Assembly (NCBI GenBank): GCA_017506865.1
Contig: JAFCMP010000007.1
Location: 62,001 to 126,000, forward strand
Reading direction: 5' to 3'
Origin: Tribonema minus
Lineage: Eukaryota; Sar; Xanthophyceae; Tribonematales; Tribonemataceae
DNA length: 64,000 nt
The notes under the pieces are model-generated. The model did no database searches, had not been told where the DNA came from, and was given only the letters and a program-made list of their open reading frames with translations. Within the stretch, counting starts at the first letter, position 1; each line of letters opens with the position of its first letter. The position numbers were made by a program, and so were the translations under genes. Positions 4,201 to 57,000 of the stretch are shown piece by piece.

Positions 4201-7200
4201 GTTCATTGTGTCATGGTGGTTTTGTGAGCCAGACATCATTGTTGCTGGCAAAGTTATGAACCATACATTGCAAAACGTGTACCTCATATTCGAAAACAGT
4301 CATTATCCTGCTACTCGCTGCAGTACGTAGCAGTACATTTCATGAGTAAATGTTGCCCTTCCCAGTCCAGGGACTCACAGAGAGCAAGCTCTATACATAA
4401 GTGAGCATCAGTGAGCATTGTACCGTACTGCAATCTAGAGCCCACTGCCTTCTAGATGAGTACCACGATACAGCTCAGACCACTAATCAACTTCAGAGCT
4501 CTCAAGTGGATGCTTCCACCGGCACTTGAAGTACACACACACTTGTGCATGTACTTCAAGTGCAAGGTGCTGCTCTCTATGACAGTGTTTATGAACACTC
4601 GGAATGCGAGAATAACTGTACTACTTCTTAGCCTAACGTCTTAAGCACAGCATCCATGGCTGGTAAGGAAACACTCGTTTCTTGAGAAACATTACCGCAA
4701 GAAGATATGGAACAGAACAATGTTTTGGCCTTCAAGGAGGAGTTTGTGCATTGCATAACACCACTGCGTCAGGCCACCTGCCAATGACAGCTCGCTTGAC
4801 CATCGCTCGTGAGGTCACCTGTCGGTACACCTGCAGTACACTTGATTGTGCCTTGCCCTAACCCTAGCCCCTAACCCTAAATAAAGCAGCACCTGCTGAC
4901 GCGCACAACGTTGGCGTCCCGGCTAGCTGAGGGTTAGGGTTAGGGTCAAAGTTTCACGCTACTCTTCCACTCGCGCAATGCCAACAGCTGTTTGTCCACT
5001 TGCGCAGTGTCAACACACAACATTGCGCTCCAAGAGTCCACTCTCGGTACATTAGAGCACACTAGAGTTCAGCGTCAGTACACACACTGTTTCAAGCGTC
5101 ACCTGCCAGTGCAGCTTACAGCTCACAAGTACACTTTAGAGTACAGCCTCAGTACATGTACACCTCAACAATCCCGCACCAGCACACCTTCTTCAGTGCA
5201 ACGACAGGTCACATAGAGTTCACTCACGAGTCCAGCAGTACAGCCCTGATGCATACATACCTCCACAGAGCCGCACAGCGTCTTCAGTGCAACAACAGGT
5301 CACGCACAGTTCAGTCACGAGTACAAAACCGCCGAATACATACACTAACTCCAAAGCGCCGCAATGCCGGACGCAGCGCCTTCAGTGCAGCCGACAGGTC
5401 ATACACAGTTCACTCACGAGTGCAGCGGTACAGCCTGAACACATACATACCTCCACAGAGCCGCAGCGCCAGACACCCCCACGCCTTCTTCAGTGCAATG
5501 ACAGGTCACGCACAGTTCACTCGTGAGTACAGCCTAGCCTTGGTCACGGGTTACGCACAGTTCACTGACGAGTCCAGTACAGCCCTAATACATACATACC
5601 TCCACAGAGCCGCAGCGCCCGACGCGCACAGCGTCTTCACCCCCACCGGCAGCCCCTTCGTGCTATCCATGCTCTCCAGCAGCGCCAACACTCCAGTATT
5701 GGCTGCAGTGTCTCCGAAGCGGGACAGGGGCCCCTGCACCAGCGCCGGTACGACACCCCTGTAGAACCTGGGGATGCCTCCTTCCTTGTAGAGGTGCGTT
5801 ATGGCAGCGCGGGTGCTGGTCCCGTGGCGGTACCTGCGGGTGCACGAGTATGAGTCACGAGTCTCACACATAAGTCTGTGCCAAGAAAAAATGTGTACGC
5901 GGTGCACACGTGTGCTGGCCGCGGCATGATCAAGCTCAAAAACTTGTCAACTAGGGGATGTAGTTTAGCTAAACAAAAATCAGGTAGCACGACAAGTTGA
6001 TGGCGATTAGCTAAGTGAGCATCAAGTGATTTGTCCACTACTCATCCTAGACATGAACACATTGTAGTAAGCGCCACAAGCGTCATAATCATCACCTGAG
6101 CTCGTGCACGCTCTAAACAAGGGTTAGCGAATTGTACACTGCACAAAACCAACTCAAAAGTCTCACTCACAAGTCTGGCTCGCAAACAGCCGGCGCGTGA
6201 CAGGTACCGTTCAACACTGCAACAGACATGGGTCCAATCGTGATTGATCACTCATTTGTGATTCATTTCATGCAATGGGCTTCATTATCACCTCGATCAC
6301 CATGACTTACTAACCAGCATGGGACCTCAATGCAGGCAGGTCACCTTTGAGCTGGGCGCATATCATGGTCAGCATGCAGATGTGTGAGCGGTTCTACTGT
6401 TCATGAATGCGCATACTTTGGCTTTTAAGTATGTGACATCTACTACTATCAAAACTTGCATTATACAAAAGGGTTGATGCTAATCCTATACGAAACTTAA
6501 AACTAGACATACAGAACCACAATCAGACTCTGTCAAAAATAAGTGATCTGGTGTCCACTCGTTGTGAAACCGCACACAGTACTCACTGGTAATTCATGGC
6601 AGTGCGGAGCCACATGAGCGTGCCAACGTTCATCACCATGGCTGAAGCGCCGGCCAGACCTGAGGGCAGTCAACAGAGCAGCAGAGCAGCAGGCAGATGA
6701 GCTCGATTATGTGAGTGCGTGAGAGAATTCATCACTGTCACCAACATAAAGATCTATGAACTGGTAAGTAAAATTTCATGTATTTACCATGTACTGTGAT
6801 GCCATCACACACACTTACATCGCTCTGTAAGCAAGGTTAAGCCTGTCCATGTCCTGCAATTAGGTTACTGAAGCAGCGATGGCTGTCCTGTCAGATTCCG
6901 GTATGTTTGTCCAGTCGATGCTGCTGGTAACACGTCGACTGAATCCAAAGACAGGCGTTGAAGTAATTGCAAGATCATCAACTACAGCGCTTGTCTCCGA
7001 AGTGCAGCCAAATAACAGCAGCAGAAAGTTCGTGCCAAGCACGTGATGTGCAGCACATTTTGCACCAATCAAGAAAGGCAGGTCAAACAGGGCGTTGATT
7101 AGGACCAGTCAAGCGTGCTGGGCCCTGGGATTAATTGGCTTCACAGCGCTTCTCTCTTTGTATGCGTTTTTGACAGAACGCAAACCAAGAAAAGCGCCGT

Positions 7201-8370: not shown

Positions 8371-10827
8371 CTACGGAGGGGCCGGCGGTTCGGCGCTGGC
8401 CGGCGAGGGCCGCGGCACTTGCAACAGTGCGATGCGGCGGTAAGCGCTGACGTCGCCATCAGGGGCGATGACTGCGTTCCAGTTGTCGATCACGACACGT
8501 GTGAGCGCGCGCTGTAGCGCGAGGGAGGTGCGGCGGCGCCAGAAGGCAACGCGCTGCGCGAGATTGTAGCTGCCCTGCGAGCTCTGCTCGGCGAGTGCGT
8601 GTAGCAGCGCTTGGGTGTCGCGTGACATAGCGCCGAAGTGGTCAAAGGCTGCGGAAAATAGGGTGTGTGTAGTGGGGTCCAGGGCCCCTGAGACTACGTA
8701 TGTGTCTATCTTTTCCTGCGAAGCCGATTCAAGCACGCGCTGCACATCGCGCGCGCCCCCCTGAGCCTGACGGAGGCGGGAGGGGCATGAGCTGTCACGT
8801 ATGGTGACGTCTATGCAACAAGCTACTTCAAAGCCGCCGCGCAGTTTAGTGCACCGGCCTGCTGCTACCGCGTCGGCGCTCGGCTGCACTTTAGGGACTG
8901 GAAGGCAGACCTGGTTGCTGCCAAAGACGATGTCCATGAACTTGTTGAACCCGTGGCGCGCCGCGTAGCGGCGGAAGGGGGCAAGGGTGTCCCGGTCGAG
9001 ACCGCGGAGGTGGGCCACCTGCTTGAGCAGCTGAAAGAGCGCGTCTGCGAGCAAGTTGTGTCGCGTGACGTTAAGCCCTTGTGTGCAGCGGCGCAGGTGG
9101 GCACCCGAGTCCACTGGTCTATGGCACTTGGGGCACCGCGCCGCAGCGGGGGCGGGGCGCTCCACGCCCAGGTGGCGCCGCAGCGTCTCGCGGAATTCCG
9201 GCGGGGACATGGTCTCCGCTGGGTCAGTGCTCGGCAATTGCGCCAAGAAACCCATGGCCCCCTTAGAGGCGCCGCTGCGCCACGCCGCGACTGCTTCCAA
9301 CGCATTTGCTGCTTCAAGCCGACGCAGCTGCGTGGCGGCGAGCGCTGCGTCTAGCACCCGTGATAGCGCCGCTTGACGCCGCGGCAGCACGGCGGCCGGC
9401 GGGGCCTGGGCAGAGCCTGGCTCGCGCGCCACCGCTGGCGCAGCAGCGCGGCGCGCGCCGGCGCGAGTCCGCATGCCCGGCCCCGCAGCTCCGCCTGCCC
9501 GTTGCAGCAGATCGCGCAGCGCCCGCCATGCGCCGTCGTCCTGGCGCCAGTCCTGGTACCAGACCGTGGGCAGGAGCAGTGCGAGGGCCGCTGCAGCCTC
9601 ATCGCTGCCGCTGCGCAGCTGCTGCAGGCAGGTAGCTATCTGGGTGAAGGTGAAGCCATAGCGGGCATGCTCTAGGACGCGGCTGCGTGCCGCGACTGGA
9701 AATGCCGCCAGTGCCGGCCCCATGCACTCGAGGGAACGTGCAGCAAATGCGGCACATGCACGGGGCGCCGCGCCCAGCACGCCAAAGCCACCACTCCCCA
9801 GCCGCAGATGCACGCGTACCTGCTGATGTGCTGGTAGCGTCACTGGGGCCTCGCCACCCCAGTCGGCGCCGCGTACCCATGCCACTGCCGCCGCCCACAG
9901 AGAGGGCGGCGCCGCCGCCGCCGAAACCGCCGGCGGGCCGCGGCAATCGTCACCCGCCGCCGGCGCGCGCTGGTGGGCCGGCGGCGTAAGACCCGCCGAT
10001 GGCTCCTGCGCCAGCGCGGCCACGGCCGCTAGCGTGATGGCGTCGAAGCGCCGTAGCTCCTCGTGCGTGAGGGATGGCGCTGTATTGCGCGATACATGCC
10101 CTGCGCGGGCGGGGACGGCAAGACGCAGAATGGAGAAGGCAGCCTGCACATCCTCCATCTGCACAAGCTCCGCAACCAGGCGGTCGGTGCCGGGGGCACG
10201 AAGGGTCGCCGCCACTTGCGCGCGCACGAAGCCCTCGGTGCCGACCGGCACCCCCATCAGCGTGATGCCGTCGTCACATACTGGTACGGGGACATTGGCG
10301 GCGGCAAAGACGGCGGCGGCGCGCTCGCGGGCGCCGCCTGAGGCCGGCACCAGCGCCGCGCATTTCGTGACGTTGACCTGAATGTTGAGCTCGCTCAGCG
10401 CCTGTTGTATGAAGCAGAACGCGCGGCCAACGTGGCCGAGCACCGGCGCGTCACAGCTGGGCGTCATGATGGTGAGGTCATCGAGGTAGCCCGGAAGTTG
10501 CGCGTAACGGCTTTGAAGTAGCGATGCGAACTTGAAAGCGAGACCGTCTCGAGAGCTCTGCAGGCCGCGAAGCGTGGCCGCAGGCTTGGCACTGCAATGC
10601 GATACATGCCAAGTGCCAAAACGCTGCATGCAGTCAGCGCCGCCTGTGCAGCAACACCTCGCGAGCTGGAGAGCCAGCGGCAGAATCAGCTGGCAGCTTC
10701 CTGCATGTTGCCGAGGGGTGTTGCCACCGGAGCGGCAACAGAACCCCTGCGCGCTGATTGGTGAACGGTTGTAGCGGTACGCACGTACGCATACCCGGCT
10801 CGCAAAAATCAGCACGCCCAGATGCAT
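8371..10827 (-). mobile_element. 5'-truncated non-LTR retrotransposon ORF (reverse transcriptase, zinc knuckle, endonuclease-like end)
   Basis: A single 818-codon frame. The first ~90 residues look unrelated or frame-shifted. Residues 114-117 are YLDD, the reverse transcriptase catalytic box, followed by the thumb-like region. A CCHC knuckle, CPKC...HLRRC, lies near residues 564-580. It is followed by a segment with an AD...D spacing and 'CIDVTIRD', which resembles the restriction-like endonuclease end of CRE/R2-type LINEs. The fingers and QG.PLGP-type motifs expected before YLDD are missing, so this is an incomplete element. Local GC is clearly higher than in the neighbours, suggesting recent insertion. 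Its 3' half has a degraded relative at 23.55-23.95 kb. Alternative: a domesticated RT-like gene, less likely because the N-terminus is broken. Confidence 0.75.
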
Positions 10828-11378
10828 CGGTAGTGCGGAGGCTTGCGCGCGCCACGACTTAGAAGGCTCGCGCCCTGAAGGGTCCCTCGCCTACAACAGC
10901 ATCTAAACCTTCAAGTTGAAGGCACGTTTCGGCAGCAATTTACGCATGCCACCTTTTCGATCATACGCACAGGCCCTAGGTACCTGCATGGTCGCGGGGG
11001 CATCGCAGTGGCAGCTCTGCAGTACAGCGCGCCCACATCCTTGCAACACTGCAGAAAGGAGCATGTGGTGACGCAGAGCAATGGTCTGTCCTCTGTGTGT
11101 ACTATTAATAAACCTAGACAGCATGCCACAAATGAGAGGGGCCTTTCAGTGCCATCTGCTTGCCAGTGCCAAGCTGGTTAACGTTTTTGTGACCCGCTTT
11201 AAACAAACTTGAGCCGGCGGCAGCCGCAGTGGCAGGTCAGCTGCCCCTTACCCCCCCCCCTCACCAGCAACCTAGCGGACCAACCAGCATTTAACGGCGC
11301 TAGCTAGCTAGCTAGGGTTTTAGAAACTGGGGGAAAGCGCCAGGGCCCAAACACCTAGCTGTTACCTCTCTATGTACC
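10828..11378. other. Spacer
   Basis: No gene recognised. A short (TAGC)n-like run lies near 11300-11318. Confidence 0.5.
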
Positions 11379-14300: not shown

Positions 14301-16269
14301 ACTACAACAATGACACCACAACAAGGGTCACTACTGACAAGGACAGTTCAATGCTTGTTCAGAGTTTTTCGAATGCCTATCATACGCAAGTGCCAGGTGA
14401 TGGCAGCATGGGCATGAGCCGATATTGCCATTCAGACAGGATGGCTCAGATCTGTTGGCAACTGCATCAGCAGCGGACTGCAGCAGCGTGCACAAGCTAC
14501 CAAAACAGCAGGGCGGAGCCATGGCGCTAACCCCAAGCCTGCTTAACCTAACCCTAACACGAACCCTAATCCAAAGCAGACGACCGCCAACCAAACAAAC
14601 TGAGAACAGCAGCTTCATATTGCAGTGTTGGTAAGATGTAGGGTTAGTGTTGGGGTAAGGGTTTAGGACAGAGATAAAGCTTGGGCTTGGGGTTAGGGCT
14701 ACGCACCGCTCTTTCACATGGTTTAGGGTTAAGGACTAGGGTAAAGATTCAGCTTGGGCTTAGGGTTAGGGTTACGCACCGCTCTTCAGGCGAATTAGGG
14801 TTAGGATTAGGGTTACGCACCGCTCTTTTGGGCGCCACGGCGTCCCAGCCGCCTTTGCTCTTGCTGTGGCCCTGGCCCTGGCCGTTGGCTGCGGTGGGGC
14901 TGTACAAGTACTCGTCGCGAGGGCTGTCCATATCGCGCACACACTGAGCACATTGTGATAATACAGGGTTAGGGTTAGGGTTAGGGTTAGTTCCATATCG
15001 CGCGCGGACTGCAGCACATTACAGGCATGACGTGCGTGCGGAGGGTGAGAGTCTGTTTAATGCAAGGGTTAGGCTGTCGTTGCATGGACTAAACGATGGG
15101 TGTAGGTTTAGAGTTCAGGTTTGGGTCTCTTGCAGAGTACATAAGAACTGAGAGGGTTAGGGTTAGGGTTAACCTAACCCTTAACCTTAGGGTTGCATCG
15201 CAGATCATGACGCTCCACACGTCACCAGTACATCCACAAGTAGCTGAGGTGCTGCTTTTCCGTTGGGCACTTTGCAAGCACAAGCTGCGAACATAACGCA
15301 CTTCTTTTACAAGAAACGACAGTTGCAGACATTGTGACAGCATCATGAACAGACCAACCAATGCAGGGCCCCCAGAGCCAGCCTTGAGCACTTGCCTGCG
15401 AGTTCCTCTGCAGCGCCAGAGGCATTGCTGCCAGCAGCTGAGCTGCTGACACGTGCATGTCGACAACACAGCAGTGCTCGCCGCTGCTGCCCGCGCTGCC
15501 CGACGACTCCGTGACGGCCTCGGTCGCGCAGCTGCTGCTGGGAGTGTCGGCCTCCGCTGAGCACTGCCGCTGCAGCGTTGTCGAGCACTGCTGTGTTGAG
15601 CACTGCTGCTGCTGCTGTAACTGCTTGCTGCTGCTGCTGGGCGTGTCGGCCTCCGCTGAGCACTGCCGCTGCGGTGGCGTCGAGCGCTGCTGTGTTGAGC
15701 ACTGCTGCTGCGGTGACTGCTGCGGCGCTGAGCCCTGCCGCTGCTGTGTTGTCGAGCACTGCTGTGCCGAGCCGCGCTGCTGCATTGAGCGCTGCTGCTG
15801 TGACTGCGGTGCGCGCTGCCCCGGCGGCGCAGTGTCGACGCCTTTGCCGGCCTGCGTTTTGCAGTTGCGGCAGCAGCGCTCAGCACCAAAACTGTGCAGA
15901 ACAGAACAGGAGGCACCAGTGTACGTAGCATGCAGCGCGCAGCACGTGTGTATGCAGCAGTGCACTTGTTTCGTCCGCCTCTGTTCGTGCGTCTGTGCGT
16001 CAGCCCAAAACCTCAGGCTTGTGATTGCACAGAGGAACCACTAGAAGACGCGGGTGGAGCATCAATTTACCATTTTCAAATATTACCATACAGCAATTTA
16101 CCATGTGCGTAAATGAATGCTTCTGTCACCGTCATGGAGCTAATTATAACTCTGACCCCTGACCCTAACCCTAAGCTGCCGCCAATCACCCACATACCTT
16201 GGACTGGTCTGGTTTCCAATCAGCTGCGTCCAGCGCCTCATGCAGTCCCCGCCAGTCATGGTCAAAAAT
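11379..16269 (-). CDS. Low-complexity protein with C-terminal IFT25-like domain, 5'-incomplete model
   Basis: Exons on the minus strand: 16269-16198, 15851-15396, 14943-14821, 13904-13428, 13271-13017, 12348-12191 and 11604-11379. All phases match, and the last exon ends in TGA. The 15396 junction uses GC (CAG/GCAAGT). The upstream exons are Gln/Ser/Ala/Gly-rich. The last three form a beta-sandwich domain: 'HPPETVIDG.SDTFWATTG' with 'LLPQ' is the hallmark of IFT25/HSPB11 and related F5/8-type domains, followed by 'VVVSSIEV' and a C-terminal strand. IFT25 works with IFT27 in intraflagellar transport, but it is normally a short protein without such an N-terminus. The true first exon is not found; weak coding-like stretches lie at 16430-16510 and 17390-17507. 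Alternatively two genes are merged, with the IFT25-like part starting in the poly-Gln exon. Confidence 0.55.
13181..13260 (-). repeat. Poly-glutamine codon run
   Basis: CAG/CAA repeats within the exon at 13017-13271 encode two glutamine tracts just upstream of the IFT25-like domain. Confidence 0.8.
14690..15012 (-). repeat. Exon-edge copies mixed with TTAGGG repeats around exon 14821-14943
   Basis: The donor edge of this exon (plus reading gggttacgcaccgctctt, about 14809-14826) is repeated at about 14769-14786 and 14692-14712. The acceptor edge (plus reading ccatatcgcgc) is repeated near 14992-15005. The copies are embedded in (TTAGGG)n, including 14965-14990. Confidence 0.75.
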
Positions 16270-21307: not shown

Positions 21308-22425
21308 ATGAAGCTGCCTCCCACCGCTCCTCCCAGCACTCTGTTCGTCAATGCTGCAGGCAGCGACGTGCCCAAGGAGTATGCCCTTCCTGCACGAGCT
21401 AACCCAGACCTGATTGTCAGCATGGCCGAGACACCGAAGGAGAAGATGGACCTGCAGCGGGAAGCTTTAGTTCGGCAGTACGTTCTGATCGTGGACAGGT
21501 CTGGCTCTATGTCCAATCCGGACGGAAGTGGCAAGACTCGGTGGGACTCTGCGGGAGCTGCTGTAGAAAAGATGGTTGACACTATTTTCCACTACGACGT
21601 CGACCACACGGTCCCATTATACGGTGAGTAGGCGCGTTTTTGTGATGGGCGGCGCTTCTGTCCAAAAATCATGCTGATGCTCAGACTACATGTCATGTCA
21701 AAGGTCCTATTGTGTGGTACTCAGACTACATGACTGTCAAGCCCTATTGTGTGTGACTTTTTTGCAGCATTGATGCACAACTCAGCACACAGCAGATGAC
21801 ACCAGCTGCATGGCACACAAGCAACATGGTCGATGTCGCACCATGCCGTCATCAAGAGTCAATGCTCTCAAGGCTCTGCGCGCTTTGGGCACAGTGTGTC
21901 ACCGAGCACTGACGTGCTGTGTCGTGGCCTCTGTTCTGCTCTTTGCTGCTTCCTCTGCTGCTGCGCTGCATTATCGCAGTTTTTGACTCTGAGGTGATAT
22001 TTGTGGGCGAGCTGACCAGCCCAGCGCAGGTCAAGCAGGTGTTCAGGGAGTTTGGGCCGCGGGGGTCAACGGGCTTGGACAAAGCTCTGCATGAAGCACT
22101 GAGTACCTATGCAGGCACAAAGCGTCCCAACTACGAGGTTGTTCCAGGGACTACATTCATTGTGCTTCTTGACGGAGGCGCTGATGACGAGGAGGCGGTG
22201 CTGCGGACAATCAGGTACTTCGCTGACCCCGCCAACAGGTTCATCGCCAACCACACCCAAATAGCCATTTCATTCGTGCAGATAGGCGATGACCCCAATG
22301 CGGAGAGGTTCCTCAAGCGACTCGATGACACCGTTGAGCCGGACATCTGCGACACCAAGAAAGATGACATCCTCTACCAAGCTGGCGGGATTGACAGACT
22401 GCTGTTTGACGCCATATTTGACTGA
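21308..22425 (+). CDS. von Willebrand factor A domain protein, copy 1 (one intron)
   Basis: Exons 21308-21623 and 21980-22425 make 762 bases (253 aa plus stop). The single intron, 21624-21979, is GT-AG and 356 bases. The protein is essentially one vWA fold with a complete MIDAS metal site: D63-R-S65-G-S67, then the Thr in 'RGSTGLDKAL' and the Asp in 'LLDGGADDEE'. No signal peptide or membrane segment, so probably cytosolic. vWA domains bind protein ligands through a divalent cation; the partner cannot be read from the sequence. It is 18 residues different from copy 2 by my hand count. Confidence 0.85.
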
Positions 22426-23539: not shown

Positions 23540-23544
23540 CTATG

Positions 23545-23943
23545 TACATGAATATGTAGTGCCGTGGCCTGACCGCGCTGACTGGATCCTCCTGGATGCA
23601 TGCGCGCTAAGAAGGGGAGGGGCAAGGGTGTCCCGTTCAAGACCGCGGAGGTGGGCCGCCTGCTTGAGCAGCTGATAGAGCACGTCCGCAAGCAAGTTGT
23701 GCCATGTGACATTGCCCATGTATGCAGTGGCGCAGGTGCGCACCTGATACCATTGGCCTATGGCACTTGGGGCACCACGCGGCAGCCGTAGCGGGGGCGG
23801 GGCCGCGACGCTCCATGCCCAGCTCGCGCGGCAGCATCTTGTGGAAATCTGACGGTGACACAGTCTCCACAGGGTTAGTGCTTGGCAATTGCACAAAAAA
23901 CCATGCCCCAGCATCAGTGCGTGACGGCGAGCACTGCATTTAA
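23545..23943 (-). mobile_element. Degraded fragment of the same non-LTR retroelement
   Basis: Nucleotide and protein similarity to the 8.9-9.3 kb part of the first element is obvious: the zinc knuckle CPKCHRP...HLRHC, 'LPSTNPVETVSP', and a shared stretch around 'caagaccgcggaggtgggcc'. The frame is broken, so it is a dead piece of about 0.4 kb. It sits about 200 bases upstream of the intronless vWA copy. Confidence 0.8.
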
Positions 23944-24152
23944 GTTGGCACCCGCAGCAGCGCCAGCATACACGGCGTTCACCACAATTTATTCTTTTTC
24001 AAAAGGTTTAAACCCCTAAGGAAAGGGGCGGGGCACGCGCCCGGATAGTTCTCGGAATGTTCTGGGGCGGGGCCCTACTGGTAGGGAAGTTGTGTGTACT
24101 TTGTGAACAATCCTCCTACACAAAGCGCACAGAGCTTACAGCACAGCGGACC

Positions 24153-24914
24153 ATGAAGCTGCCTCCCACCGCTCCTCCCAGCACCATGTTCGTGAATGCG
24201 CAGGGCAGCGATGTGCCCAAGGAGTATGCCCTCCCTGCCAGATCGAATCCAGACTTGATCGTCACCATGGCCGAGACACCCAAGGAGAAGATGGACCTCC
24301 AGAAGGAGGCTCTAGTTCGGCAGTACGTTCTGATTGTGGACAGGTCTGGCTCTATGTCCAACCCGGACGGAAGTGGCAGGACTCGGTGGGACTCTGCAGG
24401 AGCTGCTATAGAGAAGATGGTGGACACGATCTTCCAGTACGACGTTGATCACCAGGTCCCGCTCTACCTCTTCGACTCTGAGGTGATATTTGTGGGCGAG
24501 CTGACCAGCCCAGCGCAGGTACGGCAGATTTTTAAGGAGTTTAAGCCGCGAGGATCGACCGGATTGGACAAGGCACTGCATGAAGCACTCAGTACGTACG
24601 CAGGCACAAAGCGTCCCAACTACGAGGTTGTTCCAGGGACTACGTTCATTGTGCTTCTTGACGGAGGCGCTGATGACGAGGAAGCGGTGCTGCGGACAAT
24701 CAAGTACTTCGCTGACCCCGCCAACAGGTTCATTGCCAACCACACCCAAATAGCTATTTCATTTGTGCAAATAGGCGATGACCCTAATGCAGAGAGGTTT
24801 CTCAAGAGGCTCGATGACACCTCTGATCCGGACATCTGCGACACCAAGAAGGACGACATACTTTACCAAGCTGGCGGGCTCGATAGGCTGCTGTTTGACG
24901 CCATATTCGACTGA
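24153..24914 (+). CDS. von Willebrand factor A domain protein, copy 2 (intronless)
   Basis: A continuous 253-residue frame, the same length as copy 1 and with the same MIDAS residues (D63, S65, S67, Thr of 'RGSTGLDKAL', Asp of 'LLDGG'). The intron of copy 1 is missing exactly at its junction (…PLY/LFDSEV). Similarity to copy 1 continues into the 3' UTR but not upstream of the ATG. This fits a retrocopy made from spliced mRNA, or precise intron loss after duplication. Because the frame is intact it is probably functional. Confidence 0.88.
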   Translation: MKLPPTAPPSTMFVNAQGSDVPKEYALPARSNPDLIVTMAETPKEKMDLQKEALVRQYVLIVDRSGSMSNPDGSGRTRWDSAGAAIEKMVDTIFQYDVDHQVPLYLFDSEVIFVGELTSPAQVRQIFKEFKPRGSTGLDKALHEALSTYAGTKRPNYEVVPGTTFIVLLDGGADDEEAVLRTIKYFADPANRFIANHTQIAISFVQIGDDPNAERFLKRLDDTSDPDICDTKKDDILYQAGGLDRLLFDAIFD

Positions 24915-25704: not shown

Positions 25705-28115
25705 CTATGCCTTTGCTTTCCTGGCAACGTCCACTTCTGCCATGCTGTAAGCAGCAGCGCACAGCTGTGCGATGTTGACCGCTTGCTTGCACACACACGC
25801 CGGCAGACACCCATAGAAGGTCAACTGCCACAGGTGAACTTCAACTCCCCCCACCGTGATGAATGCATCCTTGTTGAACGCCAGCATGTACAAGCAGATG
25901 TAGAAGAACTCGGTGAAGACGCAGCAGTACCCAAAGAAGGGGTAGCAGCTGTAGAACAGGCGTATGAGCCAGTTGCGCCCTTGCAGCGTGCCCGCCGCCT
26001 TGTGGTGCCCCTTCGTCGCCACGCTGCGTGAAGTGCATGAACGTAGGCGTGCAGAACAATGTGCATGTGAGGTGTTGCACGAAGCAAAACTTCATCATTG
26101 AGGTACCATACTCATGTTGCAAACGTTAACAATCTTAGACGCAAAGGTGTAGCATTGACATGGTTTGAATACCGCAGTAGTAGTAGGACGCAGCAGTCAC
26201 CCAGCATCCAGCAGCAATGGCAATAAAGCTTGAAGGACAGAAGGGGCGACGAGAATCATGCCAAAGACAGGGGGTGCAACAGTTGATTGGCCATGCATCT
26301 GTCCAAGCAGACAACTTCAACTATGAGTTTGAGGCAACATGGCTGGCGAAAGCTGTGTACATGGGCAAAGCAGCAGTATGATGACGGTAGGTGTGCAGGG
26401 TCAGTCACAAGTCTTACTGTTCTGTTAGTGTCTTGTATGATTCATCAAGTCACACGGGCTGAGGTCAGAGGGGCACAAGGGAATCAGGGCAACTTCAACA
26501 GCCTTGGCGCCACTGACTGTAGGTTGGGGGCAACCACGCTTCTGATAAGACTGGCAAAAAGCCAGTGAGACCGCAACGCAACCCTTGCATGCTATCACTG
26601 GACAAATGTCGAGCCATGCACTGCGCCAACGCTCAGCAACGCCCGTCCAGTGTGATGATGATCAACCGCGATACGGTGACGCTTGAGGCCCTCGCTCACC
26701 TCGCGACGTGTATCCAGTGGCTGAAAATGTCCAGGAACATGAGGCACATGAAGTGGAACGCGTAGGCAGGGTACAGCCCCGCCAGCACAAACAGCATGCC
26801 CGCTGTGGAGCACCTGTCCGTCACCATGTCCAGCGTAGCTCCAAAGGACGACGCTGCAGTGGCATGAATGGGAGACAACAGCAGGGCGGCGTGTTCAGTG
26901 ACATGCATCAACTGCATAATAAAGCGCAGTTGATCGGGCAGTACGTATGCGCATGTGAATCAGATCAGCTATGTACGATCCATTCATCTATTCATTAATA
27001 CTAGGGTGTGACTGTTCATGTCCGTGACTGTCCGTCACCATGTCCAGCGTAGCTCCAAAGGACAAGGCTGCAGTGGCATATGTGGGGGATAAGAGCAGGG
27101 CAGGTTCAGTGACGTGCGGCGCCTGTCTGATGAGCGTTGCGGGGGTAGGTAGGTATTGTATATACCTGTACGTACTCTGGCGCTACGGCATTGGATACTG
27201 AGCTTCATGTGCTGGCCAGCAGGCCGTATATGCGGACTACAATACCACAAATCTCATGCTGACTCACAAAGTTCACAAATGTACAGGTTGTTGATGGGCT
27301 TGCACGCACTCAGCTCCAGTTCCGTGACTGGCCGCAAAACGCAGACAGCTGAAAGCTGATTGTAACTTTATAATGCTGCTACGTGAGTCTTTCAAGGAAA
27401 AATAAGGGAAAGAAGATGCAGCTACCGCTTCAGCACCTCGTTTTTTTTTGTCGCCAAGTGCTTCCTTGCGCGAACATGGTATACGTTGACATTATTGAGA
27501 TGAAAGCTGCTCTCTCGCGCAGCACTTTTGTGCTGCCGAGGAGTGTTGTTTGTTGTAACCTGCAATGCTCGCGATCTGTGATGCTCGTGAGATGTGGATT
27601 TGGCAGTGAGCCGGCAGCAGCGAGCACTAGCCTTAAATCTTGTGAGAGGCACTGGTGCCTTGGCTTCGACCGGGAATTTCCCAGTGGGTGTGGTAACACT
27701 GCTGCTTGAAGCATACAGACACAATGTCAGCCCAAGAAGAAGCTAGCACAACGCTACTGTGCATTTGAGCAGCTTGCTTGATGTCCTTGCCTGCCAGCGA
27801 AGTTTGAAACCATCATCCTTCAACAGTACGTGCTACTTTGATCCAATCGGATTGAGAGAGGAGAAAGCGAACACAGTCTTGCTTCTTGACTACGCAAGCT
27901 CTATTGGAATATTACGCCGGCCACTCACACTGATTGAAGCGCCTAGCCACGGCTCCATCGACCACATCGCCAGCGAACGCCAGCACGTAGAAGCAGACGC
28001 TGAGCTTCCAGTTGGTACCCGCAACGTAGTAGCTCGCAAGGACTGCTGCTATGCGAGAGTAGCCGATCAGGTTAGGATAGTACAGGAACACTGCATAGGG
28101 GCTCTCCGACGCCAT
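25705..28115 (-). CDS. PIS1: Phosphatidylinositol synthase (CDP-diacylglycerol-inositol 3-phosphatidyltransferase)
   Basis: Makes phosphatidylinositol from CDP-diacylglycerol and myo-inositol in ER-type membranes. Exons 28115-27929, 26853-26700 and 26023-25705 sum to 660 bases (219 aa plus stop), typical for eukaryotic PI synthases. The CDP-alcohol phosphotransferase motif is complete across the first junction: D53-G54-x2-A57-R58-x8-G67-x3-D71-x3-D75. 'FLYYPNLIGYSR' at the N-terminus and 'FGATLDMVTDRCST' are family hallmarks, and several hydrophobic helices follow. The ATG at 28115 is the first in frame. Introns 1 (1,075 bases) and 2 (676 bases) are non-coding. Intron 1 carries a copy of the exon 2 start at about 27029-27118. 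Confidence 0.93.
27029..27118 (-). repeat. Copy of the PI synthase exon 2 start and its acceptor
   Basis: About 90 bases closely match 26814-26905, covering the intron end, the acceptor and the first ~13 codons of exon 2. The exon-like part is followed by unrelated sequence, so it cannot replace exon 2 as a whole. Confidence 0.85.
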
Positions 28116-29006: not shown

Positions 29007-33183
<4,177 letters not shown>

Positions 33184-33847: not shown

Positions 33848-36800
33848 ATGGTTTCCACTAGGCGGTCTGCTTTGACGGGCGGGGACAAAGCAGCAGCGGC
33901 GTCTGCCTCAAGCACAGATAATGCTGCAACTTCTCATGCCAAACCCAAAGAGGCAGCCAGGAGAGGTGGGGCGAGGAGCCGCCGCAGCACTGCCAAAAAT
34001 GATGAGCAAGAGGATGAAGCCGCTGCGCAAGAGCCAACCGCAGCAGAGGCCGCCAACAGTGGTGGCGCGGCCGTGACGGCTGCATCTGGTGAACATCAGG
34101 TACAGACCACGACACATGCAGTGTGGCATCATCACCTGGGTACATAATCTGCTTACACGGCAGCATCAGTCGTGTGCGTGCGAGTTGTATGTAGCCTCGT
34201 CGTGTGGCCATTGTCTACACACGTTCCCCATGTTCTTTGCTGATGCATTGCAGGCTGCAGTAGGCACTGACGGTCCTGTTCAGAAGGAGACAACGCAGCC
34301 AGAGGGCGGAGGCAACGATGGACCTGGGATGGCTGCACAGACCCCCTCTAAGAAAGACAGCAAGGGGAAGAAGAAAACCCCCGCAAAGAAGGCGCCACCG
34401 ACAACTGCGTCCAAACCAGCCACGCGGTCCACGACAGCGGCGGCCGCGGCCACTGCCCCTGCAGCCGCAGCAGAGCCCCCCAAGTTTCACTATGAGTTTA
34501 TGGGCCCATGGGGGCCGGCGTTCATCATGCTGTCGCTGCCCGTGGTTGTGGTGGGGCTGTGCTATGCGTGCAATGCAGACTTCTGCCTGGACAACGACAC
34601 CATTGCGGCGTTGGCGGAGGCGGCTGAGGCGGGCGATGTACAGGTAACGGCCATGAACGTGTGAGGCAGGGCAGTATGACAAGAACAATGATTTCAGCAA
34701 GGCTACGCAACATGCAGTTCAGCAGTAGCAAGTGCAGTTTCTTTTGCTACCGTTGAATCCTCATGTCTGTTCGCAAAGAGCGGCTCCGCGTTCAGGCTCC
34801 TTCAGCAGTAAATGGGAGCTCTCCGTATCGAGGACACGTGCATCTCTTGCTCAGTTGACGTCGTGATGCCAAACTGTTGTGCCACACTGACAGATGCTCA
34901 CAGTGCACGCAACAGATGCTGCAGCATGTAGTCATCTGCTGCATGGCCCGAGTGTTAGGATGTCGTTGGTGCAGATCTGAGTAGAAGCCCGTGGTGTAGT
35001 GTACCCCTTGTGTCTGGTCCGCAGCAGTTGACAATTAACCCTAACCCTAACCCTAAGGCTGGGGTCAGACTGAAAGCATGAGTTGCATTCATGGAGCGTT
35101 GCGTGGTTTCATTTTTTGCTTCAGCAGATGCTGCACAAATGTGTAGCTAGATCTGCAGTTGATATGTGTGAGCCATGCACACTGTGTCGAGCTACTTGCA
35201 TCCCCTGGTTCCTTTGCCACGTCTTGAAGACAGATTTGCACGGACGCACTGCTGCTGCCAGGGGGCGATTGCACTCACTTACTCGCACTCACTTACTCAT
35301 ACTCTTGCGCTCAGGGCATGGGGTCAGCTATTCAAGTCAACTCACATTCCACACTTTCATCAGTTACTGGCGGCCCTTGTGCTCTTGTGCATTCAAACGC
35401 TGAGCACTGCTCTTGTTGAACTCCTGAGCACTGGTGAGCAGGAGGCAAACTTCAACTTCACGCTTGCGGGAGCAGGCGCGCTGGTCTCCGCTGCTGCCAC
35501 GGAGTTCATTCGGCTGCTGACACCGGAAGCAGCGCTCATCCTGGCGGGCTGGATGCTGCTGCAGGTCAGTAGTACGCAAGGTCGAAGAAGAAGTACTTCA
35601 ACTTCAACAAGATGAAGTGGCAGATGCCCAAGTGGGCATGACACACCGGAGACAGTGCCCATACTGTAGGGTAGTTTATTGATGCTAAAGTGAAACCTTA
35701 GCAACGCAGGCAGAGCTCATGGTAGCATTGCAGGAGTTCATTGTGAGCTCAACAATACTGGTTCTGAACCAGTGTCCATGTTGTCGGTAATTGTGAGGGG
35801 AGCGACCATAAGGCACCTTCTAAAAGCCATACGTGCAGTCCAGGTGTGCTCTCAGAGAGCACATGGCCCTAACCCTAAGCCTGATCCACATCGGTTGCCG
35901 CATCACATGCCTACTGCATGACCAATGATTTGTAGACAACCAGGCGCTTAGTGTACACCGAGCAACGCGCCAAATCAATGGGCCTTGATGCCGCGATGCG
36001 CTTCATGTCGCATCGGCTGTTACAGGTGGCCCTGGAACGGCTGCTGATCAATCAAGATTGAGGTTTTGTTACACAAAAGTGCGCCGTCATGGCGTTGGGG
36101 TTAAAGAGAGCTCATGCGGCCTATTCAGAACAAAACTTCAAGTGTGCAGCGATCCACAGTCACATCCAGTGAGCAACGCGTCAAGCGGTACTTGATGATG
36201 CCATCATGATGCGCTGATGTTGCATGTGCTGTTACAGGTGGCCCTGGAACGGCTGCTCCCCGCTACCATCGCCCTTGGCACGCCTGTTGCCAAAGCCGGC
36301 AATGCGCGCCTGCCCTACCGTATCAACGCCCACCTGGCATTCTGGGTGACGCTGCTAATCATGGGGCATGCGTGCCCCGTCATCAACGAGGGCCGCTTAC
36401 AGAGTGAGTTGCTGCTGAGTGAGTGAGTCTGAGTGAGTGAGTCACTGACATTCTGGGTTACGCTGCTCATCATGGGACATGCGTGCCCCGTCATCAGCGA
36501 GGGCCGCTTGCAGAGTGAGTGGCTTTTTATTGGTCTTGAGCTGCAATAGGTGTTGATTGGCAGGTATGTAGTGATAAATGGGGTATGTAGGTATGGACAT
36601 GTAGATGACAGCGCTCAGCATGAGGGAGAGAGTCGCTGCCTGCTGCCTCCCTTGAGCTGCGGTGTATATAGACAGGTATGTAGGTGTTGATGCCTGGGGT
36701 AGGTACGGGCATGCGGATGACAGTGCTCAGCATCAGGGGTGGACACTTGCGGTAGGTATAGGTATGCAGATGACAGTGCTCAGCATCAGGGGTGGGCACA

Positions 36801-47025: not shown

Positions 47026-47059
47026 GGCAGCTTCCTCACTGCGGTCGTGTGAGCCTGCT

Positions 47060-49224: not shown

Positions 49225-49962
49225 TTTCGCGCCCCTACAGGTGCACCCGCCGCTCAGTCGCTGCACCAACTTTTTCTTTTTTTGTCAATTCAACTTCAAG
49301 TGCGATCTTCAAGGTTTGATCTCTATAGTCCACGCGAACCAAAGTTCAGGGAGCCTCATCACGGGATCGGATAATCATCGCGGCTTTGCGGACGCAGCAG
49401 CGATTGCCGACATACGCTGGTGAGTGTGCAGCAGCAAACGTGATCACATGGACGGCATGCGGTGATCGTTCATTTCAAAATACATGAGTTCAAACCAACC
49501 ATTTACGCAAATGCCTTGCTTTCAATAAAGCCATAGGGTACCAAGCGCTTGGCTCTGCATTCAAGCTAGCCACTTGTATGCACACACCTCCAGGGACATC
49601 ATTGGTCAAGTGGCAGTTCTGCGCTTTGGCGCCTTTCTTCCCGCAGTTGCGATAGTTGCGATCCAGTTGCTGCTTGCGATTATGTTGATAACCCAGTCAA
49701 CTTAGATGGTCCACGTATAACTGCTCTTAAAGGTTCAAGCCCAAAAAAATCAACACAGTCGCCAGCGCCACCGCCGTGGATCGATTTTGGCGTGAAAAGC
49801 ACCTACCGCGCAGTGCAGTGCTACAACAACGGTGCCAATGCGACATCCGCCCGCTTCCTGCACTCCTTGTTGCATCCACTTGCTACAGGTTGCCTGACCG
49901 CGAAGCTCATCACTGCACAAATAGGACTTTCCGGCATTACGGGCTGGTGGTGCTGACGTAAA
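49225..49962. promoter_or_regulatory. Divergent spacer, inferred promoter region
   Basis: Separates the starts of the membrane-protein gene (-) and the histone chaperone gene (+). No specific element identified. Confidence 0.35.
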
Positions 49963-52900
49963 ATGACGGAGGTGTCGGAGGCAGCTCTGCTCAAGGAGTT
50001 GCGGGTCTTTGTGCCAACCATGAGTGACGCCGATACATTGAGAAACGTGAGCATGATGCACGCATTGTGCACCCAACATGTGTGCACACACTGTCAGTTT
50101 GCGTCATGAATGGAGTAGTCTAGTGATCTTCCTTTAGCATACTGAGGGCATCGAAACACACACACTGATGGAAACCTGGCAGCTGGTGGAACGCCCAGCA
50201 CGTGAGCAAGAACTGACGCTTGTACGTATGTTCAATTGGCATTTATGCATCCCGACCGATACCGTGCATGTAACAGCAACCTACCATGTCTACCCTGCGT
50301 GCAACAACAACCTGCGAATCATAGGCTGTAACCATGTCCATGCGCGACACTCGTGCCTGCGTGCAGTTGAAGGTGAAGTTGTACGCCGCCCTGCACGCAG
50401 CAGCAACAACCTACTTATATACAATGCTCAAAGTGCCTACGCCAAACTTGTGCCTGCGTGCAGTTGAAGGTGAAGTTGTGCGCCGCCCTGCACGTGGACA
50501 CCCTGGACGCTCACAACAAGACCATCAAGCGCCTCTACCGCCAGGTCTTTGAGGAGCTCCACGCCGAACCTGATAACGCTGAGGGCAGCGAAGGCAGTGG
50601 CCATGACGATCACCACAGCGCAGCCAGCGACAAAGAGGAGACCCCCAAAAAGCAGGTCAAGAAACGCGCGCGCCCAGCGGCAAAGGCCAGCGCAAAAGCG
50701 GGCGGCGCTAAAGCGGTCAAGGCTGAGCGCGGTGGGGGGGGCAAGGGGGGGGTGAAGGGGGGCAAGGGGGGCTCGAAGGGGAGCAAGGGGGAAGAGGAGG
50801 GAGGGGAGTACGATCAGGCGCTGGTGGCGCTGCGGGCTATGGGTAGGGCCATGGGGATGGGCCCCTCGCTGTACAAGGGACTCAAGGAGGAGAGCAAGCG
50901 AGTTCAGGTGCGCCGTGAGCAAGAATGCGGGTGCGGGGACGTTACATGACGTTGAGCGGTGCTGCGCGCAACTGTTGGTTGAGGGTTTCTCAGAACTTCA
51001 ACATCGGCGCATGCTCAGCACAAACAGTCCAGGTACTGTCGTATGACCTTGTCAAGCGCATGTGGTGGCTGAGGGACTCTGCTTAGACTGCAACTGTTGT
51101 TCAGTTGGCATGTGTCAACGTGCAATGTGAAGTACTAACTTACAGTATGCCTGCCTGCCCCACGGGTCAAACTGATTCCTTAGATGACGGGAGGTCCGGG
51201 AAGGACAAGCTAAGTAGGTAAGGGAACATTTTGCCCTAGAAGATGATCATGTCAAAACAAACGAGGAACAGCGCCTCGCAAACTTGGAATGTTTGGAAGT
51301 TTGGCGCAGGACTGAGGAGCAATGCACACTGATAGGGGGGGGGGTCCCACATGTGGTGACCACGTCAAGCAGAGTGCTGCTGACACATGCGGCAGCCGAC
51401 ACCTGCGCATTGCACAGCTGCTGCCTCTTTATAATGTCCGCACATTGTATGCAGCACATGCATAGTTGTATTCTTGAAGCTGCGATCGCGGATGCGTGTT
51501 GTGCGAATTTGCATGCGTACTGTATCTGTCACAGTGCTCATACACTGGTCAAACGTAGTTTTGGAGCATACGGTCATTATCATGGTTGCACTGAAAGGGG
51601 CACTGTATGTAGTGCAGGTCAGGCTGTTAGTCGCAGATCTGAATGCTGCAATGATGACGCGAGATCATTTTGATGATCGCAAGTGCCATTAGACTGAGTG
51701 ACAGGGGGTGTGCACCGTGACGGTGCAGGTGACCATGCTGTTTAGGAGGCTGTCATTCGCAGATTCAGCAATGATGACGTGAAAGACGCATACATGCATA
51801 CAGGTTCATTGATGATTGCAAATGTCATCATCATAAAGTGAATGACAGGGATTCACATCACTGCGGTGCAGGTGACTGCGCTATTTGGTAGGCTACTGGT
51901 CGCAGATCTGATTCAGCAATGTTGACATGAAGCACACAGATTATTGCAAGTGTGATGCTGAACTGACAGTGGTGTACAAACATCACTGCGGCGCAGGTGA
52001 CCATGCTGTTCAGGAGGTTGTTAGTCGCAGATGCAGCAGTAATGACGTGAAGCACCCATACATACATGCAAGATCATTTGATGGTTGCAAGTGTCATCAT
52101 GTTGAATGACAGGGGTGTCTATCACTGCTGTGCAGGTGACCATGCTGTTCAGGAGGCTACTGGTCGCAGATCTGAACTCAGCAATGTTTGATGTGAAGCA
52201 CATAAATGATTGCAAGTGTCATTATACTCGATGACAGGGGTGTACATACATAACTGCGGCGCAGGTGACCATGCTGTTTAGGCGGCTGAAAGACGGCGGT
52301 GCACGCTTCAAGGGGGACGTGCCAACGCAGACGGAAATTTCGCGTGCGCAGCGCGAGCGCGAGAAGCGACAAGATGTGAGAGTCTGAGTCAGCACTTGAG
52401 CCAGCCTCTGCACTGCCGTTGCATCGCGTATGCTGAGGGTCGCCTGCAATGTTATGTAGACACTGAGCTACAGGCAGTGTGCGTACACACGGCATGGCTG
52501 TATGGCGTGTATAGGTTAGGAGCAGCTAGCACGGACCTATGTCTTCCCTGTCGGTATATCGAGAGGCAGCTGATCACTTTTGTGTGTGTGCGCGGGCCTG
52601 CTTGTGGATTGCACAAGAAACATGATGCAATGCCACCCACCGTTGGGGGCATGCGTATTTCATATTGTGCATCCGGTGGGTTCTCTGTTACACCTGTGTG
52701 ATGGAATGCTCATAATGGAACTATTGTGGAGTTATGTCATTGCTGCGGACTTCATGTATGCGCGTGTGTAGCAGATGCAGCTGAATGGCCTTGACACAAG
52801 CCTCATGATGAACTTGTTCAAAGTATGTGCATACAGTGTAACATGAACATGGCAGACGGACCGCATGTGACGCTAGCCTCACTATGTATGCATGTATGTA

Positions 52901-53534: not shown

Positions 53535-54047
53535 TGGCTTCCACAGTGTTGTATGTACTGAATACCAGCATGTACATACCCATCTATGTCGTGAATGACT
53601 TCTGTGGCCGATGCAGACGGTGCCATGCCTTGATGGCAACATTGCAAGTGGACTACATACAACGGTGCGCGTACTTTGTCCGTGTTTTGGCTTTTGAATC
53701 GTTGGTGCTGCTTTAGTGCCTCAAAGGATCGCGTCGGTCTGTCGTACATACATGCATGCCTGGCCTGAGCATTGATGCTGCCGTCACATTGATTGCCATG
53801 ACTCATGAGCAAGCACATTGCGTTTTGCCTTGTCGCACTGATGCAATTTGCACCCATGCAGTTTGATCAACAACAACGACAACACACATGTTTGACAAGC
53901 TCAAGAGCAGTAAGTTGTCAAACATTGACATTGCCACACAACCTCATGTCAAGAAGACTGCGTATGATTGACAGACTACGAAAGTCGTTGAAAGTTCTAC
54001 TGGTGCTGCCCTCTGAGACAGCTGTATACCAATGACGCTGCAGTCAT
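53535..54047. other. Convergent spacer
   Basis: 3' UTRs of the HIRIP3-like (+) and GCNA-like (-) genes. No gene seen. Confidence 0.5.
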
Positions 54048-57000
54048 CTACGTCGTCGCCGCCGCCGCCGCCTGCTGCAGCTTGTGCCGCCGCGACAGCT
54101 CCCTCATCACCTCCCCGTGGCTAGCCCCCCCCATGCCCCCCTTGACACTCGCAAAGTGCTCCTTCACAAAGAGGCTGAACCCCGAAGGCTGACGCGCAGC
54201 GACCGGCGTACCATCTGCCTTCACCCGCTGCGTCGGCAGCAGCAGCAAGCGGCCGCTGCAAGCCCCGCAAGCCATCTTGTCAGTGTCGAGGGACTTGCTG
54301 TGGCGGCCGATGACCGTTTTGCAGCCCTGGCACTCGTAGCGGAATTTGTAGGCAATGTCGTAGCTGTGGCATGTGGTGACGGGGAGGTGGGGGTATACGC
54401 GCTGCGCACGCCGCGCCCACGCCTGGGGGGCGGGAGTTGGGAGAGGGGGCGGGGGGGCAACGGGGGGGGGGGGGGGGGGAGGGGGGTTAGGGTGTACACA
54501 TGCAGTGCATTTAACTTTGGCCCACATGTACTGCAGTGTAGTGTCCTCTTCACACAACTGTCATCAGCCCCAGATCTGTGCAGCTGCTGTGGGTTCCCAA
54601 GATGCACAAGACAGTTGAGCGCGGCGGGGGGAGAAGGGACCAGAGTGAGGGGTTTTGCAGCGCACGGTTGTGTCAGCCTAACCCCTAAACCTAACCCAAA
54701 TTCTGCACTGTACATTGGTTACACAGGCTGCAATTGCTACATGGGCAGGGAGGCGCAGAAAACATTTAAGTGGTGGATTGAGGCAAGGGTCGTTTGATTA
54801 CTGTACCAATTGTCACACGGGGCGCTGTCTTTGAATGCTGAGCAATGCTGCAGCGATGCGTGCTGTACTGGAGCACGACACACAGCACCTCAAGATGCGG
54901 AGTCTCATGCAAATGTGACTCGTCAGTTCATCATCATGCTTTAAACTGCGGCCCACGTGGTTCGACTGATTCACCAATTGATTATTGTGATGCATTGTTC
55001 TTTCAACTGCGGCCCTTGTGGTCGAAAGTTGTGATTCATCAACTCATGCGTATACCTTGAACTGCGGCCCATGCGGGGCTTGAAGTTATCAGTCCACATT
55101 TCATTATTGTGGTTCATCAATTTATGATCAAACCTTTGTGAACTGCAGCCCGTGTGGTCCATGCATCATGCTGAATATTCATGATTATGCCTTGAACTGC
55201 GGCCCATGCGGGGGCTCCACATTGTGTCCACCATGCACTTTTGTGATTTCAAAAACCATTCATGATCACACCTTTTGAGGCCCGCATGTCCCTAGAATGT
55301 TGTTGTCAATTCATGATCATACCTTGAACTGCGGCCCATGCGGGGGCTTCACGTTGTGGTCCACCATCCATGCGGCAGCGTGGCACAGCTCGTGCAGCAG
55401 CGTAGACTGCAGTCGCTCTTCGCTGTCCAGCACCTTGCAGCTAAGCTCTATGCGCGCCTCGTAGTGCCAGTCAGCTGCAGCAGCGCTCCGCGATCTGCAA
55501 CAACGTCACAGGTGAAGATGAGTAAGTTCAAAATTGAAGTAGACTGCAGGTCCAACACCTTGCAGCTCAGCTCTATGCGCGCCTCATAGTGCCAGTCAGC
55601 CGCAGCGGTGCTCCGCGATCTGCAACAGCGTCACAAGTGAAGATGAGTAAGTTCAAAATTGAAGTAGACCGCAGGCGCTCTTCGCTGTCCAACACCTCGC
55701 AGCTCAGCTCGATGCGCGCCTCGAAGTGCCAGTCAGCTGCAGCAGCGCTCCGCGATCTGCAACAGCGTCACAGGTGAAGATGAAGTAAGTTAAAAATTGA
55801 AGTTGACTGCAGCAGCGCTCCACGATCTGCCACAACAATGTCACAGGTGGAGACGAGTAAGTTCAACTTTGAAGTCCGCCGCAGCAGCGCTCCGCAATCT
55901 GCAACAGCGTCACGCTGAAAGAAGACCAAGTTCAACGTTGAAGTCACCGGCAGCAGCGCTTCGCGTTGTGCAACACAATATCACAGGTGAAGAAGGATAC
56001 ATTCAATGTTGAAGTCAGCTGCAGCAGCGCTCCTGCGATCTGCAATAGGTGAAGAAGATCAAGTTCAACATTGAGGTAACTAAACAGAATGTTGAAGTAC
56101 GCACACCTTAGATATTGAAGTACACAGCGGCTTTGGTTCTTGCGCCAGCTGCGTAAGGTTGATGCAACTGGAATGCAAGCTTTTAGATGGCGGACGTAGT
56201 GACAGTCACTTGCAGTAGCGTCATGAGCATCGTGACAGTACAGAGAAGCGCTGCTACACCGTGCGTTGCGTGATGATACTTTGAAGTACACTGACTCACT
56301 GTGTTGCACTCAAAAGGTCAGCAGTTGCTTTTCATCATGAAAGTTGTTGAAAATGTCCTGATCAGATGACCTTGATGTTCTAGAGTGATCTGCTGTGTTG
56401 TCTAATCTGTGGTGGACGTGTGGCGTTGCGGCAGAGCATCCATTATACGGCTAAGTGGCTATAGAATTATTGTAACTGTAGCTCAACAGCATCTCCAGAA
56501 TCATCTCATTCACGCCAGCACAGGCAGATGCTGTCAGGTCACTTTCTTTTTTCCGTGCTCTGCATGTCTGCAAGTGTGCAGCTGTACTACAGCCGCTGTA
56601 GGAGCCCTGAAACAGCAACACTTCTTCACATACTGTAGTTGACGAATGAAATCAGGCGTGAGCGTGTGCTTGGCTCCAATTTCATGACTTGCTACATAGA
56701 GTGAGCCATGAGTCACTCACTTGCTGCATCTGGTGATCCCCGCGGTCGACGACAGGCGCTTGCTCCAAGTCACCTGCGTCCCCCCCAGCCTGCCCCCAAA
56801 CACCTTTGCATCGAATTCGCGCAGGTACTTTTCCGTCAATGCCGCCCTCTGCCTGGCAAAAGACAGCCCCACTGACCCCCCTGCGGCAGCTGTTGCCCTG
56901 CTTGTACCCCCCTTTCGTGGGGTTTTGAAGGGGGGAGGGGAGATCACATTCTCAACAGCTGCCAGTGGGGGCCTTGTCTTGGTGGCCGTTTTTGTTTTTG

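What the first reader, a model, noticed from the sequence alone, without database searches (positions are those of the whole stretch)
5150..56060. Exon edges are repeatedly copied into neighbouring introns across at least seven genes
Acceptor-edge copies always lie upstream of the exon and donor-edge copies always downstream, in the SLC25, PI synthase, MAPK, sterol reductase, IFT25-like, HIRIP3-like and GCNA-like genes. Each copy keeps the splice-site context plus 15-100 bases of exon, and copies decay with distance. A general local-duplication process centred on exon-intron junctions would explain the long introns and would produce arrays of decoy splice sites. I know of intron gain by tandem duplication of AGGT sites, but not of this pattern of serial edge duplication as a genome-wide feature.
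Basis: partly seen in the sequence, partly recalled or inferred. Interest (0 to 1): 0.88.

Follow-up and report, generated by a model that had tools for sequence, protein, structure and literature searches.

The report
Random local duplications crossing exon edges
This alga's genome is littered with short DNA stretches copied next to themselves; when such a stretch spans an exon edge, selection keeps the exon-side copy and a decaying fake of the edge stays in the intron, most likely without any mechanism aimed at exon edges.

Summary
The copies are real. The window is from the yellow-green alga Tribonema minus or a very close relative. Of 47 exon-intron edges tested, 10 have an intron-side copy and none an exon-side copy. 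SLC25, sterol reductase, HIRIP3-like and GCNA-like cases are strong, PI synthase shows by BLAST only, MAPK is weak, IFT25 is not confirmed. Short-range direct duplication is genome-wide: 247 direct against 16 inverted pairs, 11.8% of 264 kb. Centring on exon edges is not shown. In 20 pieces outside the window, edges carry copies in 4 of 164 (strict rule) to 16 of 248 (permissive rule, 16 more set aside), against 8-10% of intron interior. A null model without edge preference predicts an edge/interior ratio near 0.48, about 4-5% here, inside that bracket. The window itself shows an excess (7 of 48 against 10.6%). The copies decay like neutral relics: exon-part divergence is 0.61 of intron-part divergence. 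One-sidedness follows from selection: the exon-side copy stays the exon. I read this as ordinary local duplication, probably of break-repair type, filtered by selection.

The parts
5141..5638 (-). Donor-edge array of the SLC25-like gene: several diverged copies of the exon end at 5600 plus intron start, lying downstream (lower coordinates)
   Evidence: BLAST pairs 5428-5488/5577-5638, 5204-5275/5546-5614 and others; score 74 vs 14 inverted; weak Mito_carr match of the exon, 19.5 bits, below cut-off 22.3
26814..27117 (-). PI-synthase-like exon start (93 bp) copied upstream after a 121-bp spacer, 86% identical
   Evidence: BLAST pair 26814-26906/27028-27117; exon 80/92, acceptor core 3/5; CDP-OH_P_transf match below cut-off
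31773..31936 (-). Weak donor-side copy at MAPK exon 31937-32221, beside a 25-bp tandem repeat 31855-31907
   Evidence: Score 39 vs 17 inverted; TRF; Pkinase 121 bits
35995..36257 (+). Sterol reductase acceptor edge (exon from 36238): 51-bp copy 213 bp upstream, 90% identical
   Evidence: score 75 vs 17 inverted
36334..36524 (+). Sterol reductase donor edge (exon to 36403): 80-bp copy 111 bp downstream, 31-bp spacer, 91% identical
   Evidence: score 65 vs 21 inverted
50343..50494 (+). HIRIP3-like acceptor edge (exon from 50470): 55-bp copy 97 bp upstream, 93% identical, 42-bp spacer
   Evidence: score 90 vs 21 inverted
51621..52288 (+). HIRIP3-like acceptor array before exon 52265-52375, unit about 268 bp with sub-copies
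   Evidence: TRF; BLAST pairs; score 78 vs 18 inverted
55039..55370 (-). GCNA-like donor edge copies (exon 55323-55494), two diverged copies downstream
   Evidence: score 73 vs 19 inverted
55402..56080 (-). GCNA-like acceptor array, six copies examined; the ab initio gene finder calls two copies exons
   Evidence: TRF; score 110 vs 20 inverted
57820..57899 (.). Contrast: 40-bp tandem duplication inside an intron, touching no exon edge
   Evidence: TRF

Best explanation
Short (about 50-300 bp) direct local duplications arise all over this genome. Those within exons, or that lengthen the mRNA, are removed by selection. Those in introns, and those across a single exon-intron edge, are tolerated, because the copy next to the exon can go on serving as the splice site. 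The other copy then lies in the intron as a non-functional decoy and drifts. Repeated events build arrays. The edge is not a target: it stays recognisable because one half of the pair is held constant by selection. Shown: direct excess genome-wide, one-sidedness, neutral-looking decay, and an edge rate outside the window that needs no preference. Inferred: the molecular cause, most likely duplication during repair of staggered breaks, sometimes with filler DNA between the copies.
For: Direct 247 vs inverted 16 local pairs, 11.8% of 264 kb; 40-mers with a copy within 800 bp: 12.3% direct, 1.5% inverted. In 106 introns the rate rises from exon interior (2-3%) through the edge (4-6%) to deep intron (7-11%) with no marked peak at the edge. 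Random pieces: edges 4 of 164 vs interior 8.0%. Null simulation without edge preference gives edge/interior 0.48; pooled 11 of 212 observed vs 9.2-9.6 expected from base-weighted interiors. In 26 of 27 copies (one dropped for lack of intron part) the exon part is 12.9% and the intron part 21.1% diverged, ratio 0.61, close to the roughly 0.63 that I expect if the exon is constrained and the decoy neutral; 65 synonymous, 82 nonsynonymous differences; splice core 88% identical. Of 28 isolated two-copy events 21 have a spacer over 15 bp and 6 are adjacent.
Against: In the window edges exceed interiors (7 of 48 vs 10.6%; P 0.013-0.015 against the null). With the per-intron mean as interior (5.8% pooled) the pooled 11 of 212 exceeds 5.9 expected, P 0.04. 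The strict independent set misses more than half of the edge hits that hand-picking finds in the window (3 vs 7 of 48); the permissive set gives 16 of 248, above the 11.8 that 0.48 times its 9.9% interior predicts. In a small carrier set exon interiors (5.9%) exceed intron interiors (2.5%), unlike the main set. The simulation's settings are assumptions; a lower-rate version gave 0.5 down to 0.06. Copies in one array are not independent.
Confidence: 0.7

Rival explanations
1. One reading: a duplication process centred on exon-intron junctions, for instance through transcription- or splicing-linked breaks, adds edge copies serially.
For: Window: 7 of 48 edges vs 10.6% interior, per-intron difference +0.079 (0.025 to 0.139). 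All 8 of the 24 hand-picked window introns with interior copies at score 44 carry an edge copy, PI synthase counted by BLAST, though an edge copy itself makes interior copies, and two other window introns have copies without edge contact (21624-21979, 57208-57935). Permissive count outside: 16 of 248, some artefacts.
Against: Strict count outside: 4 of 164 vs 8.0% interior; 11 of 20 repeat-bearing introns have no edge contact; intron bases 30 bp inside the edge are not enriched in either set (4.2% and 3.3%). The window is where the idea arose.
Confidence: 0.17
2. The copies are functional alternative exon edges kept by selection.
For: Some copies have an identical splice core and open frames; the gene finder accepts two GCNA copies as exons.
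Against: 82 of 147 codon differences are nonsynonymous, and splice cores are no better kept (88%) than exon parts (87%).
Confidence: 0.05
3. Assembly artefacts or unmerged haplotypes.
For: Some contigs elsewhere look allelic, by matching kinase hits.
Against: Copies are on average 13-21% diverged with a coding-aware pattern; a search with 2.5 kb around the GCNA array finds only its own place (that search skips very common words).
Confidence: 0.02
4. Mobile introner-like elements inserted near splice sites.
For: Repeated sequence in introns of several genes.
Against: The GCNA array matches only itself; edge copies derive from their own exon. Other arrays were not searched genome-wide.
Confidence: 0.03

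Closest known systems
Tandem duplication across an intron-exon boundary in a potato RdRp gene (PMC4974935, abstract and section list seen)
   Same: A local duplication spans an intron-exon boundary and copies the acceptor with part of the exon
   Different: There a new intron arose; here the copies stay inside an existing intron
[quoted passage not shown]
   Same: Local duplication copies splice signals
   Different: The duplicated segment is exonic and makes a new intron; here segments are intronic or edge-spanning and lengthen an intron
Small tandem duplications from repair of staggered breaks, CST / Pol alpha-primase (PMC8355091, passages seen; Vaughn and Bennetzen 2014 seen only as its citation)
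   Same: Direct orientation, short range, some with additional mutations
   Different: Shown in mouse and human cells; untested in this alga; duplications there are mostly shorter

Membership tests
Random local duplication plus purifying selection | Direct orientation strongly preferred over inverted at short range | tested here: met
   247 vs 16 pairs under 3 kb
Random local duplication plus purifying selection | No excess at exon edges over what intron interiors predict | tested here: inconclusive
   Outside the window 4 of 164 (strict) to 16 of 248 (permissive) bracket the prediction; window 7 of 48 exceeds it
Random local duplication plus purifying selection | Intronic copies evolve neutrally | tested here: met
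   Exon/intron divergence ratio 0.61; 65 syn, 82 nonsyn in 26 copies; expected values are my arithmetic
Strictly adjacent tandem duplication (replication slippage) | Copies abut without spacer | tested here: not met
   21 of 28 isolated events spaced by more than 15 bp; the other 192 of 220 pairs lie in overlapping arrays and were not judged
Intron gain by AGGT tandem duplication | A new intron bounded by duplicated exonic AGGT | not tested
   Copies lie inside predicted introns; no relative's gene structure was compared and no AGGT test was run
Introners | Same element in introns of unrelated genes | tested here: inconclusive
   One array searched: only its own place matches
Break-repair (staggered DSB) tandem duplication | Dependence on end-joining or fill-in enzymes | not testable with these tools
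   Needs mutants

The most novel reading that the evidence does not exclude
Local duplication in this alga has a real preference for exon-intron junctions, perhaps regional or limited to some genes, strong in this window and only partly visible with the gene models used elsewhere, for example through breaks at sites of co-transcriptional splicing or R-loops.
Probability: 0.15. Interest if true: 0.75.

Novelty: new member of a known kind. Interest (0 to 1): 0.33.

Why it matters
It shows how an ordinary mutation type plus selection can mimic a process aimed at splice junctions, and offers simple yardsticks: an exon/intron divergence ratio near 0.6 and an edge/interior ratio near 0.5. A genome with over a tenth of its sequence in recognisable short-range direct copies would be a good place to study duplication by repair and intron lengthening. 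Gene finders can be misled by the decoys: the one built here called two GCNA copies exons.

Tried and rejected
A first profile with unfiltered ab initio genes showed about 16% coverage at edges against roughly 7-12% nearby in the intron, rising to 22% far from acceptors. It looked like support, but many of the 36 listed edges were array copies called exons, so I dropped that set. A repeat-masked gene set gave 7 of 214 edges against 8-11% intron interior; it is biased against edges and not used. The strict set (106 introns) turned out to undercount edges, so I added a permissive set; in it, the window gives 12 of 83 (4 of the 12 on mis-called GCNA exons), the random pieces 16 of 248, with 2 and 16 set aside. 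A set of carrier loci gave 12 introns, 1 of 24 edges hit at centre and 3 of 24 within 8 bp, intron interior 2.5%, exon interior 5.9%; a first pass on them used one strand only and is not used; 1 of 15 loci (L043) was left out as overlapping. A first null simulation had too low an event rate. Rfam gave 0 matches, ARAGORN 0 genes. Scripts 15 and 40 ended in errors. Eight paper searches listed no paper that I recognised as describing serial exon-edge duplication as a genome feature; some lists were capped (20 of 34, 15 of 16, 12 of 15, 8 of 13) and the library is partial. By eye, homology searches show similar cases elsewhere: a Ras-like gene on C77 with two downstream copies of its exon end, one on C446 with two upstream fragments, a kinesin on C246 with one downstream copy. 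I did not count these systematically and could not fetch the first two.
Full report
WHAT THE WINDOW IS. The window is G000:C7:62001-126000 of a 158-Mb, 554-contig assembly. Its predicted sterol reductase is 98% identical, over 54% of the query, to a protein named Tribonema minus; the next hit is Heterococcus at 56%. So it is a yellow-green alga, T. minus or very close. I trained a small gene finder on the window and fetched pieces. It learned a donor close to MAG|GTGMGT and an acceptor close to TGCAG, and returned recognisable genes.

IS IT SPECIAL TO THE WINDOW. No. In 20 pieces of 10 kb, spaced at 100 kb on two other contigs, plus the window (264 kb) there are 247 direct and 16 inverted pairs within 3 kb, covering 11.8% of bases; by piece the coverage runs from 0 to 70%. 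A more sensitive 40-mer scan finds direct copies within 800 bp at 12.3% of positions, inverted at 1.5%.

IS IT CENTRED ON EXON EDGES. A naive profile suggested so, but much of that signal came from array copies called exons. Requiring exons to be supported by non-repeat sequence leaves 106 introns: 10 of 212 edges have a copy at the edge itself (inverted control 2 of 212), with a rise from 2-3% inside exons to 10-11% more than 200 bp into introns and no marked peak at the edge. Separating the discovery window (24 hand-picked introns) from the rest: window edges 7 of 48 (14.6%) against 10.6% interior; random pieces 4 of 164 (2.4%) against 8.0%; 30 bp inside the intron 4.2% and 3.3% (threshold 36). 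Averaged per intron, the interiors are 6.6% and 5.5%, which makes the window excess larger and the random deficit smaller. With one-sided 60-mers at 44 the figures are 14.9% of 47 against 8.0% in the window, and 3.7% of 164 against 4.6% outside, random exon interiors 1.5%.

HOW FAR THE INDEPENDENT TEST CAN BE TRUSTED. On a recheck I ran the strict gene-finder set on the window itself: it gives 3 of 48 where the hand-picked introns give 7 of 48. The strict set therefore undercounts edge hits. A permissive rule (any exon scoring 8 or more in a gene scoring 50 or more; edges whose copy lies in another predicted exon set aside) gives 16 of 248 outside the window, 16 set aside, interior 9.9% (5.9% per intron); several of the 16 sit in arrays or simple repeats and are probably artefacts. 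In the window the same rule gives 12 of 83, interior 7.0%. The true outside rate thus lies between about 2.4% and 6.5%.

WHAT A NULL MODEL PREDICTS. If duplications fall anywhere, are rejected when they lie in an exon or reach two exons, and decay neutrally, interiors gain two visible copies per event and the edge only one, while exon constraint makes edge pairs last longer. The simulated edge/interior ratio is 0.48 with the constraint effect, 0.42 without; if only 60% of edge-spanning events are tolerated it is 0.31. With base-weighted interiors, as in the simulation, pooled data give 11 of 212 against 9.2 expected at 0.48 (P 0.32) and 6.7 at 0.35 (P 0.08). The window alone gives 7 against 2.4 (P 0.013); the random pieces 4 against 6.3. 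With per-intron interiors the pooled expectation falls to 5.9 (P 0.04). For the permissive outside set 0.48 x 9.9% x 248 is 11.8 against 16 seen. So outside the window no edge preference is needed, and a modest one is not excluded.

DO THE COPIES DO ANYTHING. I aligned 27 copies at 12 edges; 26 at 11 edges have both parts (8 edges in the window, 3 outside; not independent within arrays). The exon part is 12.9% and the intron part 21.1% diverged, ratio 0.61. If the exon is constrained except at about a quarter of sites and the decoy is free, I expect about 0.63. Differences are 65 synonymous and 82 nonsynonymous, near the roughly 40% synonymous expected by the same reasoning. Splice-site cores are 88% identical, like the exon parts. 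The decoys look like neutral relics.

HOW THE DUPLICATIONS ARISE. Of 220 pairs within 1.5 kb, 28 are isolated two-copy events: 6 adjacent, 21 separated by more than 15 bp, 1 overlapping; of the 16 with 85% identity or more, 12 are spaced. In 14 spaced events with 82% or more, the flanking sequence stays within the 95th percentile of background similarity on both sides in 12. This is not simple slippage. It fits duplication during repair of staggered breaks with filler DNA, or duplication followed by indels. PMC8355091 (passages seen) describes small tandem duplications from fill-in at staggered breaks and cites a rice study that I did not read. A potato gene in which a tandem duplication crosses an intron-exon boundary is a direct precedent (PMC4974935, abstract seen).

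VERDICT. Observation partly confirmed. A general local-duplication process is supported; its centring on junctions is not shown, and the one-sidedness is what selection must leave behind.

Noticed in passing
window 21308-22425 and 24149-24914: Two neighbouring vWA genes, 88-90% identical in the aligned coding stretches: the first has a 356-bp intron, the second lacks it exactly; 200-bp flanks show no clear similarity. A fragment resembling the retroelement frame at 8374-10890 (by eye) lies just upstream of the intronless copy, suggesting a retrocopy or precise intron loss.
   Followed up: partly
window 8374-10890 (-): 839-aa open frame that looks by eye like part of a LINE-like retroelement (484 aa of it have no Pfam match), with a related fragment at 23543-23998.
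   Followed up: partly
window 3161-3202 and 14965-14990: Short interstitial telomere-like repeats (CCCTAA / AGGGTT units).
   Followed up: no
L001, L002, L006-L008, L019: Similar kinases in single open frames on several contigs, and a frame in L019 that resembles a viral capsid protein (recalled, untested), may mark endogenous giant-virus-like stretches in this assembly.
   Followed up: no
L003 (contig C40): 75% GC with a kinase in one open frame: possibly a contaminant contig.
   Followed up: no
G000 contigs C144/C223/C278 and C90/C179: Identical or near-identical kinase matches on different contigs: allelic or duplicated stretches that could serve for copy-number comparison.
   Followed up: no
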